A stretch of DNA of 16,342 bases from a bacterium. GTDB taxonomy: Bacteria; Zixibacteria; MSB-5A5; GN15; FEB-12. Made by a program: the position numbers and the translations under genes. The DNA is taken from positions 1-16,342 of the forward strand of contig DAOUUR010000009.1 of the NCBI GenBank assembly GCA_030668045.1, written 5' to 3'. This document shows positions 1-16,342 of this stretch, in pieces. The first letter of the stretch is position 1. The number at the start of each line of letters is the position of its first letter. The notes beneath the pieces were generated by a model. The model did no database searches, was not told the DNA's origin, and saw only the letters and a program-made list of their open reading frames with translations.

Positions 1-118
1 CTGGTGTTTCCATTGTGGCCGGACGGCATCGACTGCGGCTGAGATTGTCCATACCGACAGTTGTCATCGTCAAACAATGGTCTACTGTGCCGAAGTTGAA
101 ACTCCGATTGGAGCGTTC
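1..118. repeat. Terminal direct repeat, left copy (circular-assembly overlap)
   Basis: Bases 1-118 are identical to bases 16225-16342. A reading frame runs without a break from the right end into the left end, so this is best read as assembly redundancy of a circular molecule of 16,224 bp rather than a biological repeat. A linear genome with short terminal redundancy is the alternative, but the gene crossing the join argues against it. Confidence 0.9.
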
Positions 119-2796: not shown

Positions 2797-3846
2797 ATGA
2801 GACATACACTGGCGGAAATCCCCGGAGGTATCGCCGGGACCGACAGAACCGTTCAGGAGATTGCAAGGCTTGTCAGGTATGATCTTGAACGGCCACAACT
2901 GCGGCTCATGGCAAGCAGGCTGTTGAGGAACCATGCGATTAAATCCAAAGACTATACTGGTGAAGCTCGCGCGATTTTCGATTTCGTTTCGCGTCGTGTT
3001 CGGTATCAAAAAGACCCGCTCGATGTTGAAACTGTTCAAAGCCCTACCGCCACAATTGAAATTGGTGCTGGTGATTGTGATGATCATTGCGGTCTTGTTG
3101 CTGGTCTGGCTCTCGCTGTCGGAATACCTGCCCGGCTCCGAGTCGTTGGTTATTCAGAAGATCGACTTGTCCATATATTCCCAGAGTTGTTTGTCGACGG
3201 TCAATGGTTTCCTGCCGATACTACCGAACCCAAACGCGGCTTCGGTTGGAGGCCTCCTAAGTTTCCCGTCGAACGTGTTTACAATCTAAACGGTGAGGTG
3301 CGCGATATGTCAGGCGACGAATCAGTTCAAGTAACGAGAGGTGATGTGAAAAAAGCGGTCGAAATGGCTGTCGGTCAAACACTGTCAAGAAATTGGGAAG
3401 CCGGATTGATCAACCTTAATGATGTTCGTGGATATCTCAGAGTCATCCGCGAAGGCAACTTTCCAACAAAAAACGAACTGGCCATTGAACCAACCGAAAA
3501 AGCTATTCAGAAATTTGCCGACCACATTGTCGAACACAAGATAGGTTCTTTGAAGCCCGCCGGATCGTCAACAGAACTTGAAGGTCTTAGCGGTACTTGG
3601 GACGATCTCTTGAATGCCGGAAAGGAGTCGGTCAGGTATTATTTGAATACGAGTCAAACAACTCCCGGTGGTGGTGAAAGTGCTCCCTTGATCAGATTTT
3701 CGCCGACAATCACTATTCCTGAGCATCTTATTCAGGCGGAAGCAACGCCAGCTGTGGCCAGTGCGTTCGGAGCCGGTCTCGGCCGGGGAATGGTGCCGTT
3801 ACTCATTGCGGCTGGCTTGGCTTTGTTTCTAATTGTGAGAAAGTAG
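2797..3846 (+). CDS. Transglutaminase-fold protein with C-terminal membrane anchor
   Basis: A 349-residue protein. The transglutaminase-like (papain-fold) core covers about residues 50-145: Cys94 in GDCDDHC, His126 in VHIF and Asp141 in PADTT match the Cys-His-Asp triad in order and spacing. Members cleave or cross-link proteins via a thiol intermediate. The middle region (about 170-320) is unassigned. The last residues (about 331-349) form a hydrophobic anchor ending in IVRK. It opens a block of membrane proteins, so it may be a virion or assembly enzyme acting at a membrane (inference). The ATG lacks a clear ribosome-binding site; a later Met at residue 38 is possible but also has none. The same C-terminal anchor is nearly repeated in the next gene. 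Confidence 0.8.
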   Translation: MRHTLAEIPGGIAGTDRTVQEIARLVRYDLERPQLRLMASRLLRNHAIKSKDYTGEARAIFDFVSRRVRYQKDPLDVETVQSPTATIEIGAGDCDDHCGLVAGLALAVGIPARLRVVGYSEDRLVHIFPELFVDGQWFPADTTEPKRGFGWRPPKFPVERVYNLNGEVRDMSGDESVQVTRGDVKKAVEMAVGQTLSRNWEAGLINLNDVRGYLRVIREGNFPTKNELAIEPTEKAIQKFADHIVEHKIGSLKPAGSSTELEGLSGTWDDLLNAGKESVRYYLNTSQTTPGGGESAPLIRFSPTITIPEHLIQAEATPAVASAFGAGLGRGMVPLLIAAGLALFLIVRK

Positions 3847-3881
3847 GTAGTCGAATGTATGTACAAACAGGTTTAGGTTTT
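3802..3881 (+). repeat. Gene-junction repeat, copy A
   Basis: This segment covers the last codons of one gene, the stop and the first codons of the next. It resembles 4440-4520: the 45 nt up to and including the stop match at about 84%, and both next genes begin with Tyr-x-Gln-Thr-Gly. A 1-nt offset lies around the start codon. Confidence 0.7.
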
Positions 3882-4484
3882 GCTCTCCCCGCTGTTATTG
3901 GAGCCGGTAAAGTCGGTTACGGAATCTTTTCGTCCATATTAGGTACAAAGCCGCCTGAAAAAACGCTCCCGTGGCGATTCTCCACTCCCCCTGGTACTCC
4001 GCCCGGTTATTTTTACATAGTATACTTTGGTTCGAAGCGTGACACCGGAGGATGGACAGACTACTCTGGCGGTCCGGAATTGCATACGGTATGGGAAGGC
4101 TGGTTGGATGAATTATATAGTCCAAAAGGTTTCGATATCAGCGGTGGTCCCATTGACGGCGGATTGCGTAACTGGCGCGTTTTTGTGAAAGACAGGGTTG
4201 TACACATGGGTGACGACTTCGGCCGGGGCTGGGTCGAATCACGCGCTTTCCCTGAAAGGGAAATCCTTGATATTGTCGCTGCTGTAGAATCACGAGAGAA
4301 AACCGGTCCGTATGTCCCGAAAACTCAACAGGCTGCACAGGCTGCACAGGTTACACAAGTATCCCCGTATGTTCAAACGGCTCCCGTCGCGTCAACTGCC
4401 TCGATGTTCGATAGTGGTGTTGGTGGTACATGGCCTCTGCTCATTGCGGCTGGCCTGGCTCTAATGTTCATTGTGAGAAAGTAG
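3855..4484 (+). CDS. Tail-anchored protein, unknown function
   Basis: A 209-residue protein. The N-terminus MYVQTGLGFA is followed by a weakly hydrophobic Gly/Ala stretch (about 8-30). The globular middle (about 38-145) is rich in Trp, Tyr and Gly and contains a Pro-Gly turn repeat. A low-complexity Gln/Ala linker (about 158-170, partly a 9-nt tandem DNA repeat) leads to a C-terminal membrane segment at about 191-207 ending IVRK. The anchor is almost the same as in the preceding gene and the N-terminus resembles that of the following one, so these three genes share duplicated ends. It is likely a virion membrane or core component. I do not recognise a family. Confidence 0.65.
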   Translation: MYVQTGLGFALPAVIGAGKVGYGIFSSILGTKPPEKTLPWRFSTPPGTPPGYFYIVYFGSKRDTGGWTDYSGGPELHTVWEGWLDELYSPKGFDISGGPIDGGLRNWRVFVKDRVVHMGDDFGRGWVESRAFPEREILDIVAAVESREKTGPYVPKTQQAAQAAQVTQVSPYVQTAPVASTASMFDSGVGGTWPLLIAAGLALMFIVRK

Positions 4485-4520
4485 GTTGTCATGGGATATA
4501 TACAAACAGGTTCAGGTTTG
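4440..4520 (+). repeat. Gene-junction repeat, copy B
   Basis: This is the second copy of the gene-end/gene-start junction described at 3802-3881. The stop codons (3844-3846 and 4482-4484) sit at the same distance from the repeat start. The conserved parts are the anchor codons, the AGAAAGTAGGT around the stop and the ACAAACAGGT of the next N-terminus. Confidence 0.7.
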
Positions 4521-10961: not shown

Positions 10962-11405
10962 ATGCCGCTTACTGCAAACGCTGCTTTTACCGAAAGGCAC
11001 AAACTGATAACTACTGGTATAGTTTCCCCGGCAGCGGGATTATCCCTGTTTCATTCTTTGCCAGCCGGTCAAGTTTGGCAGATTGTTGCTGTTACCTTCG
11101 GTTTGACAACCTCAGCGGTTGTTGCTGATCGACGTGCATACGTCGCGGTGAGAAATGGGGGGAATATCAACCAGTGTTCTACATCTTCTTATGTTCAGCC
11201 CGCCAGCCAGGCATACAATTATTACTTTTCTTGTGGAATTGCTCCCTTAGATGCAACAGCGGATGTTGATCGTATATATGCACCTCTTGCTTGTGGCATG
11301 CAGTTGTATGACCAAGATCAATTTGTTATAATTATTGATCATATCGACCCGGCTGATGCAATAAGGGATATTTTAATCAGATACTACGGATGGAAAGAGG
11401 ATTAA
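10962..11405 (+). CDS. Beta-rich protein, paralogue of the next gene (copy 1)
   Basis: A 147-residue protein. It shares with the following gene its N-terminus LTANAAFTERH, a central TTS/D...DRR, the element FSCG[IV]AP[LV]DAT, LACG[MV]QL and the C-terminus Y.WKED. The two are therefore tandem duplicates. Alternating hydrophobics suggest a beta-sandwich. A GGAGAT ribosome-binding site lies about 10 nt upstream. It lies just after the lectin-like gene and before the peptidase, so it is a candidate decoration, spike or adhesin protein. No known family is recognised. Confidence 0.65.
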   Translation: MPLTANAAFTERHKLITTGIVSPAAGLSLFHSLPAGQVWQIVAVTFGLTTSAVVADRRAYVAVRNGGNINQCSTSSYVQPASQAYNYYFSCGIAPLDATADVDRIYAPLACGMQLYDQDQFVIIIDHIDPADAIRDILIRYYGWKED

Positions 11406-11406
11406 T

Positions 11407-11859
11407 ATGGTACTTACTGCAAACGCGGCTTTCACTGAAAGACACATGCTGGAATCTGTGGTTATTCCTGCTCCCGCTGCGGGTGTTCAAGCAATCTACA
11501 CGGTTCCAGGCAACATGGTTATACAAGTTGTCGGACTCTTCTTTTCTCTAACTACTGACGCGAATGTGTCTGATCGTCGAATGGTCATATTCGCATACCA
11601 GGACGCTGGGACCGGCTTTGTCCAATCGTCGGTTTCCTCTATTGTGCAAGCTGCGAGTTTGGCGTGGGACTATCATTTCAGTTGTGGTGTTGCTCCTGTC
11701 GACGCTACAGGCGACACGGTTCCATTTGTTTGTTCCCCTTTAGCTTGTGGTGTACAATTACAGGCCGGAGAGAGGTTGTATCTATACCCAATGGGAGTTC
11801 GGGCCGGGGATCAACTTTCGGCTTGTATAATGCGCTTCTACGAATGGAAAGAGGACTGA
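11407..11859 (+). CDS. Beta-rich protein, paralogue of the previous gene (copy 2)
   Basis: A 150-residue protein, clearly a duplicate of the upstream gene (same N-terminus, FSCG, LACG and WKED ends), separated by 1 nt. Copies differ mostly in the loops between conserved elements, as expected of diverging surface proteins. Both gene ends use GGAAAGAGGA, which acts as ribosome-binding site for the following start. It overlaps the peptidase gene by TGATG (11857-11861). Confidence 0.65.
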   Translation: MVLTANAAFTERHMLESVVIPAPAAGVQAIYTVPGNMVIQVVGLFFSLTTDANVSDRRMVIFAYQDAGTGFVQSSVSSIVQAASLAWDYHFSCGVAPVDATGDTVPFVCSPLACGVQLQAGERLYLYPMGVRAGDQLSACIMRFYEWKED

Positions 11860-12371
11860 TGCCGGTAGCTGTTCACACACCCGTCGACTGGTCAAGGATT
11901 CAATTCTATGAGCCGTCCGACTTCGACCATCCTGAAAAGTTAGACCACTCTGTCGTATATGGTCTTGATCGACTGGCCTTTGTGCTCGGAAAGAAAGCGA
12001 TTGTTCTGAGTGACTGGCGGCTCACGTCACAGTTTGCCGATAGTATGCACCCCTGGGGTCGGGCTGTCGACATAACCTATCCTGACCTTGATTCGATGGA
12101 CGTTTTGAACACTATTCGCAATCAGAAATTATTTGGTGGAATCGGCATGTACGTCAATGCGAAGGGTGTTGTCTCTTTTCATGTCGATACTCGGACGGAT
12201 CGTAGCCCTATATCTCCTGCGACATGGGGCGCTCAAAAGGGACCGAACGAAACTGAGTGGGTCTATACTACCCTACGATCCATAAGTGACTTTGTAGGAC
12301 CGGCAGCACTTCCCCTTAGTGTGATTGTTGTGATGCTGGTCGGCATATATTTGTATACTCGCAATTCGTAA
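11859..12371 (+). CDS. M15-family cell-wall peptidase with C-terminal membrane anchor
   Basis: A 170-residue protein of the M15 D-Ala-D-Ala carboxypeptidase/endolysin family. The zinc motif H64-P-W-G-R-A-V-D71 and the second histidine H108 in SFHVD match the family's HxxGxAxD...HxD arrangement. Such enzymes cut peptide crosslinks of peptidoglycan. Unlike the usual soluble endolysins it ends with a membrane segment (about 147-167) and a short RNS tail. This suggests attachment to a virion or cell membrane, hence a role in wall penetration at entry or in controlled lysis. ATG 11859 overlaps the previous stop, with GAGGAC upstream. A longer frame from 11664 is a shadow overlap. Confidence 0.85.
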   Translation: MPVAVHTPVDWSRIQFYEPSDFDHPEKLDHSVVYGLDRLAFVLGKKAIVLSDWRLTSQFADSMHPWGRAVDITYPDLDSMDVLNTIRNQKLFGGIGMYVNAKGVVSFHVDTRTDRSPISPATWGAQKGPNETEWVYTTLRSISDFVGPAALPLSVIVVMLVGIYLYTRNS

Positions 12372-15070: not shown

Positions 15071-15907
15071 ATGGGTGAATATATCACAAACGGCGTTATT
15101 GTCCGCCTTCATTACCAAAAGGTCGGACAAAACAACAGTCGAAAAAAAGCCTCTGCGATAATTCTGGCTATTTTCTGTCTGGTTGTGATGCCGCTTGCGA
15201 TATATAATCAGGGAGATAGCGGTCTGAGGCCGTCACGTTTGATCTCATGGGTCGGTTCTCCCCCACCGACAAATGAGAGAGCAGACGCCGTTCCGCTATC
15301 TCTCTCTTCCAATTCAACAAATTTTCCCACCGGCTATGTTGGGAAAGTCCGGGTCGTGCCTGAGCATCGCGACCTGGGTTTGTCTCTCAAGGGACTTCCG
15401 GAGTTGTCTCTTAGTCATCTCACGGCTCCGGGAGTTTCCGATAATTTCGCGCCTGGCGATAGTGACTCCCCACTGTCAACCGATTGTGAATACGGGTTGG
15501 ATGATCCTGACCCTATGTGGAGATTCACGTCAAGAGGGCTGCCGGTCGGATATCGAAAAGGGGGAGTCTCTTTGCAGCTCGGCTTTAGACCTCCACAAAT
15601 TCGACTTGTCAATCCTCGTTGGCCTTCCGGTATCTATAATCTTTTCGATACTGTCAGAGTCGACGGCATATTGACTTGCTTGTCGAATGGCCGTCTGTCA
15701 ATCTCTTCTGTCCATGAGAGTCACCGGCGAATGGGCTTTGTGGAGTCTGTCAAGGGTGCTATCCGGCAGGGCCGTTGTGATCCTGCCCTCGATGCTGCCG
15801 GGCAACCAATATCTGTTCAATATCGATATTGCTGCCTATTTGTGCAGGGTGCTATCCCTTCTGTCATTGTCGGCGGTTCTGTAAACGCAAAAATCAAAGA
15901 GGAATGA
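15071..15907 (+). CDS. TonB-like membrane protein
   Basis: A 278-residue protein. Basic residues precede one membrane segment at about 27-45 (type II signal anchor). A Pro/Ser-rich periplasmic stretch follows (about 46-170). The C-terminal region (about 173-258) has the outline of a TonB C-terminal domain: PPQIRLVNP..P at the start, a strand with G-I-L, the turn NGR, a central V-x-E-S-H, GFVESVKGAI, then DPALDAAGQP and Y-x-Y...F. TonB links the inner-membrane proton motive force to outer-membrane receptors. Four cysteines and a longer spacer between strands differ from classic TonB. TonB on such a small circular viral genome is unexpected. A structural spike with a similar fold is the alternative. 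The end supplies the ribosome-binding site of the next gene. Confidence 0.5.
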   Translation: MGEYITNGVIVRLHYQKVGQNNSRKKASAIILAIFCLVVMPLAIYNQGDSGLRPSRLISWVGSPPPTNERADAVPLSLSSNSTNFPTGYVGKVRVVPEHRDLGLSLKGLPELSLSHLTAPGVSDNFAPGDSDSPLSTDCEYGLDDPDPMWRFTSRGLPVGYRKGGVSLQLGFRPPQIRLVNPRWPSGIYNLFDTVRVDGILTCLSNGRLSISSVHESHRRMGFVESVKGAIRQGRCDPALDAAGQPISVQYRYCCLFVQGAIPSVIVGGSVNAKIKEE

Positions 15908-15913
15908 TAGAAA

Positions 15914-16111
15914 ATGAGAATCGGAGTTGGTGAAGATGGACGTTCTATGCTGGTTTTGTATCCCGAAACCGAGGCGGAACGCCAAGCTATTAACGATACA
16001 TATAAAGCTTACGAGGTGACGGACAATCAGATTCTCTCGGCTCGGATAGAGGCCGGAGCGTCTGACAGTCTTTCTCTGATCGTCCACATAGGGAAAATTA
16101 AAGAGGAATGA
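15914..16111 (+). CDS. Small hypothetical protein
   Basis: A 65-residue protein beginning MRIGVGEDGR with a helical, Glu-rich middle (PETEAERQAI) and a beta-like end. It ends KIKEE, the same five residues as the preceding TonB-like protein, because both genes end with AAAGAGGAATGA, which contains the ribosome-binding site (AAAGAGGA) of the gene after it. No family recognised. Confidence 0.55.
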   Translation: MRIGVGEDGRSMLVLYPETEAERQAINDTYKAYEVTDNQILSARIEAGASDSLSLIVHIGKIKEE

Positions 16112-16221
16112 AAATGGCTATTGAAAAAGAAATCGAACTTGGAATGCTGGAAAAGCATGAAGGTGACATGTGTTTAAAGTGTGGTTGGGCCTTTTGGAAG
16201 GATTGTAAAGATGCCGAATAA
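16108..16221 (+). CDS. 37-residue cysteine-pair peptide
   Basis: ATG 16108 overlaps the previous stop by ATGA (alternative in-frame ATG 16114, with slightly better spacing from AAAGAGGA). The product has C22-L-K-C25 and C33 in an otherwise charged, partly helical peptide, so it may be half of a zinc knuckle. Its last codons overlap the start of the join-crossing zinc-ribbon gene (16211). Its tight coupling on both sides makes it more likely real than chance. Confidence 0.55.
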   Translation: MKMAIEKEIELGMLEKHEGDMCLKCGWAFWKDCKDAE

Positions 16222-16342
16222 TTACTGGTGTTTCCATTGTGGCCGGACGGCATCGACTGCGGCTGAGATTGTCCATACCGACAGTTGTCATCGTCAAACA
16301 ATGGTCTACTGTGCCGAAGTTGAAACTCCGATTGGAGCGTTC
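16211..16342 (+). CDS. Zinc-ribbon protein, 5' part (gene crosses the circular join)
   Basis: The start ATG lies 8 nt after a GGAAGGA Shine-Dalgarno sequence (16196-16202) and overlaps the end of the preceding small gene by 11 nt, which suggests translational coupling. The frame stays open to the window end and continues in bases 2-214 for a total of 75 residues. The first Cys-x2-Cys pair (C7, C10) is in this part. See the 3' part for the rest. Confidence 0.75.
   Translation, partial: MPNNYWCFHCGRTASTAAEIVHTDSCHRQTMVYCAEVETPIGAF
16225..16342. repeat. Terminal direct repeat, right copy (circular-assembly overlap)
   Basis: This is an exact copy of bases 1-118. Remove one copy when circularising. 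The gene that starts at 16211 continues through it and ends at base 214. Confidence 0.9.

What the first reader, a model, noticed from the sequence alone, without database searches (positions are those of the whole stretch)
15071..15907. TonB-like protein on a small viral genome
A signal-anchor, Pro-rich spacer and a C-terminal domain with the TonB outline are not a usual viral cargo. It might tap the host's energy-transduction machinery to alter TonB-dependent receptors (for example blocking superinfecting phages that use them or aiding DNA uptake), or be a fold reused as a virion spike.
Basis: partly seen in the sequence, partly recalled or inferred. Interest (0 to 1): 0.8.

Follow-up and report, generated by a model that had tools for sequence, protein, structure and literature searches.

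The report
Virus-carried TonB-domain membrane protein
A small virus found with uncultured Zixibacteria carries a relative of a host inner-membrane protein that ends in a TonB domain, the part bacteria use to pull open outer-membrane gates, so it may interfere with those gates during infection.

The parts
15071..15907 (+). TonB-domain protein gene (278 aa)
   Evidence: four virus-type relatives P0002, P0003, P0004 and P0006
15071..15148 (+). N-terminal cytoplasmic segment (aa 1-26), virus-type motif LHx(Q/H)KxGQxxS, counterpart of GxxxKxxYQxN in most orphans and YGxxELKxxYQRN in the chosen Zixibacteria TonBs
   Evidence: alignments and sequences; 7 of 26 positions invariant in the five virus-type proteins
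15149..15205 (+). transmembrane anchor (aa 27-45), N-in; no Ser-x3-His
15206..15580 (+). periplasmic spacer (aa 46-170), predicted disordered, mildly Pro-rich
   Evidence: pLDDT mostly under 50; composition
15323..15364 (+). conserved block 1 (aa 85-98, begins FPTGYVGKVRVV), shared with orphans
15473..15553 (+). conserved block 2 (aa 135-161, STDxxYGL...RGLPVG), counterpart of the orphans' FGLPxxEPYMP-like stretch
   Evidence: 11 of 27 positions invariant in the five virus-type proteins
15584..15853 (+). TonB C-terminal domain (aa 172-261): E195-203, E209-216, H223-233, E249-257
1..118 (.). terminal direct repeat, left copy (circular genome of about 16,224 bp)
16225..16342 (.). terminal direct repeat, right copy

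Best explanation
SHOWN: the gene encodes a protein with one membrane anchor and a TonB-type domain, related to an orphan TonB-like family of Zixibacteria chromosomes, on a small circular virus binned with that lineage. INFERRED: it came from a host gene and serves as a decoy. During infection it inserts N-in and reaches across the periplasm with its flexible spacer. Through the free edge of its last strand (249-257) it pairs with the TonB box, or an equivalent strand, of one or more host outer-membrane receptors, or it takes a seat at ExbBD. Either way it displaces energised host TonB, so TonB-dependent gates stay shut and superinfecting viruses, or progeny re-adsorbing to the cell, are kept out. 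Identity steps: about 0.95 likely. Decoy mechanism: about 0.35.
For: Fold and homology; an orphan profile holding no virus-type sequence hits the window protein at E 7.8e-26 (one-sequence database). Possible targets exist: the bin has 7 TonB-dependent-receptor plug matches and 4 matches to the MotA/TolQ/ExbB family. Conservation among the five virus-type proteins sits in the N-terminal segment, block 2 and the TonB domain while the spacer drifts (mean pairwise identity 0.48, 0.64 and 0.57 against 0.20 and 0.28), as expected of a protein with contacts at both ends. A TolB peptide binds TolA by beta-strand pairing, in a complex described as similar to TonB bound to a TonB box (passages of PMC7391070). 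tonB mutants resist phage T1 (passages of PMC11658791). A phage protein, Cor, inactivates the receptor FhuA (passage of PMC11436027).
Against: No binding or phenotype evidence exists. It is not shown that viruses of this phylum enter through TonB-dependent receptors. The orphan family has its own unknown function, which the virus may simply reuse. The conserved N-terminus is as compatible with a working, energised TonB as with a decoy. Direction of gene transfer and time of expression are unknown.
Confidence: 0.35

Rival explanations
1. It keeps the (unknown) task of the chromosomal orphan family, an envelope-spanning adaptor or sensor with a TonB domain, and the virus uses that task to tune host physiology.
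For: The virus-type clade has the chromosomal L012 as sister (support 99/98, long branch). Blocks 1 and 2 are shared with orphans and, by eye, are not part of the chosen TonBs.
Against: The CxxC after the last strand, in 11 of 14 orphans, is missing in 5 of 5 virus-type proteins, so the task may have shifted; but two intact chromosomal orphans of G009 (L012, L014) lack it too.
Confidence: 0.25
2. It is a working, energised accessory TonB: it couples to host ExbBD and drives one chosen receptor, feeding the infected cell.
For: Full TonB layout with conserved N-terminus and C-terminal domain. The chosen TonBs of the phylum also lack Ser-x3-His (0 of 19). One marine megaphage paper proposes a SusC receptor as uptake cargo (passages of PMC9723777).
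Against: The GxxxELKxxYQRN-like segment of TonBs and most orphans is rewritten in the virus-type proteins. Pfam found no receptor in any of 27 listed window ORFs.
Confidence: 0.15
3. It weakens the envelope at lysis by competing in Ton/Tol links, standing in for a spanin.
For: No holin or spanin was recognised among 27 listed ORFs by Pfam or 26 of the 27 by PHROGs; only an M15-like peptidase at 11859-12371. TolA domain III is the nearest fold after TonB. Tailless phage PM2 uses unusual lysis proteins (passages of PMC9502842 and PMC1950889).
Against: Small lysis proteins are often missed by profiles. No link of this protein to Tol was found.
Confidence: 0.15
4. It is a virion component (membrane or spike protein) that reuses the TonB fold.
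For: The genome is allied to Salisaeta icosahedral phage 1 through its transglutaminase; such virions contain a membrane (recalled) and may carry membrane proteins.
Against: None of 11 held IMG/VR stretches (parts of contigs, mostly) nor Salisaeta icosahedral phage 1 has a counterpart by profile. The non-viral relatives are chromosomal. The related contig L042 ends before this region, so it says nothing.
Confidence: 0.08

Closest known systems
TonB energy transducer (Pfam TonB_C, PF03544; PDB 6i97, 1u07, 2gsk)
   Same: N-in anchor, extended periplasmic spacer, C-terminal domain fold and strand order; N-terminal segment with a partial likeness to that of Zixibacteria TonBs.
   Different: No Pfam TonB_C hit on the window protein itself. 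No Ser-x3-His, as in the chosen local TonBs. Extra conserved blocks 1 and 2; virus-borne.
Orphan TonB-like family of Zixibacteria chromosomes (14 aligned here; unnamed; NCBI calls one, P0008, 'hypothetical protein')
   Same: N-terminal segment, anchor, blocks 1 and 2, TonB domain; hhalign 99.5%, E 9e-23.
   Different: The virus-type proteins lack the CxxC after the last strand (0 of 5 against 11 of 14) and have their own N-terminal variant.
TolA domain III
   Same: Related fold: ranks 15, 17 and 25; ranks 15 and 16.
   Different: Lower Z (3.2 to 5.0) than the best TonB domains (up to 11.2).
Phage receptor-blocking exclusion proteins such as Cor of phi80 and N15 (passage of PMC11436027)
   Same: Proposed outcome: a TonB-dependent receptor is made unavailable to other phages.
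   Different: No sequence or fold comparison was made; a TonB-domain mechanism would differ.

Membership tests
TonB_C domain superfamily | C-terminal domain of TonB fold and strand order | tested here: met
   (virus-type sequences only)
TonB_C domain superfamily | Sequence homology by profile | tested here: met
   Through the orphan family: and 62 (12 of 12 PDB hits at E up to 10 are TonB or TolA, 3 of them at E up to 0.001). Direct comparison of the five virus-type sequences was not significant (1.3%).
Pfam PF03544 TonB_C | Curated score on the window protein | tested here: not met
   No hit at E up to 10. One of four virus-type members at E 0.1; 7 of 10 members of a mixed alignment at E up to 10, best 9.5e-5.
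TonB energy transducer | Ser-x3-His in the transmembrane segment (SHLS motif; passages of PMC12215075) | tested here: not met
   0 of 5 virus-type proteins; also 0 of 14 orphans and 0 of 19 chosen Zixibacteria TonBs, so not decisive in this phylum
TonB energy transducer | Coupling to ExbB/ExbD | not testable with these tools
   No interaction data; MotA/TolQ/ExbB-family matches are present in the bin
TonB energy transducer | Binding of TonB boxes of outer-membrane receptors | not testable with these tools
   Receptor plugs are present in the bin; binding not computed
TonB energy transducer | Proline-rich, charged, extended spacer | tested here: inconclusive
   Pro within the local TonB range, Glu/Lys at its low end
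Zixibacteria orphan TonB-like family | N-terminal segment, anchor, blocks 1 and 2, TonB domain | tested here: met
Zixibacteria orphan TonB-like family | CxxC after the last strand (majority feature) | tested here: not met
   0 of 5 virus-type, 11 of 14 orphans; hence described as a side branch related to the family rather than a plain member

The most novel reading that the evidence does not exclude
A virus has turned a host orphan TonB into a device that plugs into the envelope's proton-driven ExbBD motor and redirects its pull to shut, or selectively open, chosen outer-membrane receptors. This would be viral control of the Ton motor itself rather than of a single receptor.
Probability: 0.15. 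Interest if true: 0.85.

Novelty: new variant of a known kind. Interest (0 to 1): 0.6.

Why it matters
The tonB gene was found through phage resistance (passages of PMC11658791), and phages are known to exploit the Ton system from outside. A virus that carries its own TonB-domain protein could control that system from inside the infected cell. The work also brings out a TonB-like family with a frequent CxxC in an uncultured phylum, and offers a concrete, cheap test in laboratory E. coli with TonB-dependent and TonB-independent phages.

Tried and rejected
No homologue of the protein was found in IMG/VR by single sequence or by alignment, in phage records by tblastn, or in the first genome-contig scan. 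Rep, g12382 and g7219 found no relative in IMG/VR either. PADLOC gave nothing for the protein.

Weak Pfam hits of the window protein to acetyltransferases (E 0.02) were dropped: below cut-off, and at odds with the fold.

The BFVD structure search with the full model gave 158 matches at E up to 10, none at 0.001. The disordered spacer dominates the listed alignments, so it says nothing for or against viral TonB domains.

Provirus origin of the chromosomal relatives: tblastn of 27 window ORFs on seven fetched regions found only the TonB-like gene, in two of them (L012, L014). L012 sits among genes that I read by eye as purM, a methyltransferase, cysE and cysK.

An ordinary TonB query found 6 phage records: four contigs of 'Acinetobacter phage MD-2021a' with an annotated TonB and two unannotated 'UNVERIFIED' faecal scaffolds. 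I treat them as doubtful; contamination is my inference. An orphan query found none.

Papers: in the listings of searches (titles and starts of abstracts) I saw no phage-encoded TonB; most subscription papers are not held. That excess TonB domain in the periplasm inhibits TonB function is recalled only; searches did not retrieve it. PMC9022066 was searched for six terms without a hit. PMC12013270 and PMC12494485 held nothing on the point.

The contigs that hold P0002, P0003, P0004 and P0006 could not be fetched, so a conserved neighbourhood is unknown, and it is not certain that P0004 (36-kb contig) and P0006 (10-kb contig) are viral; 'virus-type' means these five sequences (the four and the window's own).

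Rows dropped before counts: L034, an orphan-like second protein of G028, was not put among the 14 orphans; L028, among the 14, ends before the CxxC position; P0008 was left out of the tree as a copy of L015.

Full report
What was claimed and what is there. The ORF is there as stated. The window is contig C297 of a 3.03-Mb bin and carries a 118-bp direct terminal repeat, so it is read as a circular genome of about 16.2 kb.

The genome is viral. Its transglutaminase (2797-3846) is 24% identical, over residues 16-220, to gp34 of Salisaeta icosahedral phage 1 (E 1e-7), annotated there as a structural protein, and it finds 11 IMG/VR contigs. Four of those (L107, L111, L113, L114) also match g6447, g7219, g7909 or g12382. 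A partial relative in another bin of the same bacterial family, L042, is hit by 15 of the 19 window ORFs from Rep to g13581, in the same order, two of them at one place; the contig ends there. In the phylum, the transglutaminase profile hits 2 of 132 genomes at E up to 1e-20, the window's own and G073 of the same family. Host phylum: of two same-family genomes found in named records, one is titled Candidatus Zixiibacteriota (L053; its contig length is within 100 bp of G063's) and the other only 'bacterium'; P0008, on a contig of the length of G028's, is named candidate division Zixibacteria. Host assignment rests on binning plus the same-family relatives.

Relatives. A protein search at E up to 10 found four sequences including the window's own: P0002 (73%), P0003 (53%) and P0004 (35%); a profile search added P0006. 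P0002 and P0003 lie on 14.5- and 14.7-kb contigs. In 61 genomes of the lineage 6 had a match at E up to 0.001, the own one included. With the wider profile 14 of 54 genomes of the family matched at E up to 1e-6: the own one, 10 with orphan-type proteins (G004, G005, G009, G014, G028, G030, G063, G067, G069, G077) and 3 (G019, G065, G074) with other TonB-domain proteins matched through the C-terminal domain only (sequences). In 132 genomes of the phylum 49 matched; five of those places overlap PF03544 hits, so the profile reaches ordinary TonB-domain proteins. The orphans share the N-terminal segment, one membrane segment, two conserved blocks and the C-terminal domain.

TonB homology. The profile of four virus-type sequences hit two PDB sequences at E up to 10, both TonB, at E 0.13 and 0.15 in register; the single sequence hit none of TonB. 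With 14 sequences it hit 12, all TonB or TolA, best E 4.8e-5, three at or below 0.001. hhalign gave virus-type to orphans 99.5% and orphans to 19 TonBs 99.0%; column shuffles, 30 for each of four comparisons, gave at most 1.0%. Leaving out L012, L013 and L014 keeps both links (99.1% and 98.7%). The direct virus-type-to-TonB comparison is not significant (1.3%, or 0.7% with L012 added). The 19 TonBs were chosen from 30 loci, read, for carrying an N-terminal ELK/EMK/AMK segment; the 11 others (short, truncated, fused or otherwise built) were dropped.

Descent. In a 23-row tree the five virus-type proteins are one clade (96/93) with chromosomal L012 as sister (99/98). L012 is a long branch (2.44), five rows were flagged as long, 8 of 20 inner branches are open, and the root is by midpoint, so the direction of transfer is not shown.

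Motor contact. The Ser-x3-His motif that contacts ExbB in E. coli (passages of PMC12215075) is absent from 5 of 5 virus-type, 14 of 14 orphan and 19 of 19 TonB sequences. The bin's TolA-like L002, about 1 kb from an ExbB-family match on C340, does carry S-x3-H by eye. That they are real transducers is supported in G009, where two TonB_C matches lie within 3 kb of an ExbB-family match.

How it probably works. Mean pairwise identity among the five is 0.67 in the tail, 0.64 in block 2, 0.57 in the TonB domain, 0.53 in block 1, 0.48 in the N-terminus, 0.42 in the anchor and 0.20 and 0.28 in the spacer. Part of the tail's conservation may come from a ribosome-binding site of the next gene that overlaps its last codons. 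A protein anchored at one end and with a strand-pairing domain at the other fits a competitor for TonB partners. Receptors (7 plug matches) and ExbB-family proteins (4) are in the bin. Everything beyond fold, anchor and kinship is inference.

Verdict. A real and unusual feature: a TonB-domain protein on a small virus, related to a chromosomal TonB-like family without a name in the libraries searched. Identity is secure, function is open.

Noticed in passing
2797-3846: Transglutaminase-like protein related to structural protein gp34 of Salisaeta icosahedral phage 1 and to 11 IMG/VR contigs; suggests a loosely defined group of related viruses.
   Followed up: partly
1570-2685: Rep-like protein with weak matches to REP_ORF2-G2P and an IS91-type zinc-binding domain (below Pfam cut-offs); relatives in 5 of 98 genomes including the window's own, some on contigs without other window genes.
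   Followed up: partly
15881-15917 and 16085-16117: Two neighbouring genes both end in KIKEE-stop written AAAGAGGAATGA, which looks like a ribosome-binding site for the next gene overlapping the stop.
   Followed up: no
L013, L015, L016, L017, L018, L024, L025, L026, L027, L033 and P0007: Orphan TonB-like proteins with a CxxC just after the last strand (11 of 14); an unnamed envelope family of Zixibacteria.
   Followed up: partly
L031 and G043:C16: Proteins with two or more TonB domains in one frame (L031 by eye; G043:C16).
   Followed up: no
10962-11859: Two tandem related genes (70% DNA identity over 80 nt) in the run of small unidentified genes.
   Followed up: no
3795-3852 and 4433-4490: Two adjacent genes end in nearly the same membrane tail (LLIAAGLAL..IVRK), 81% DNA identity.
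   Followed up: no
912-1598: DNA methyltransferase.
   Followed up: no
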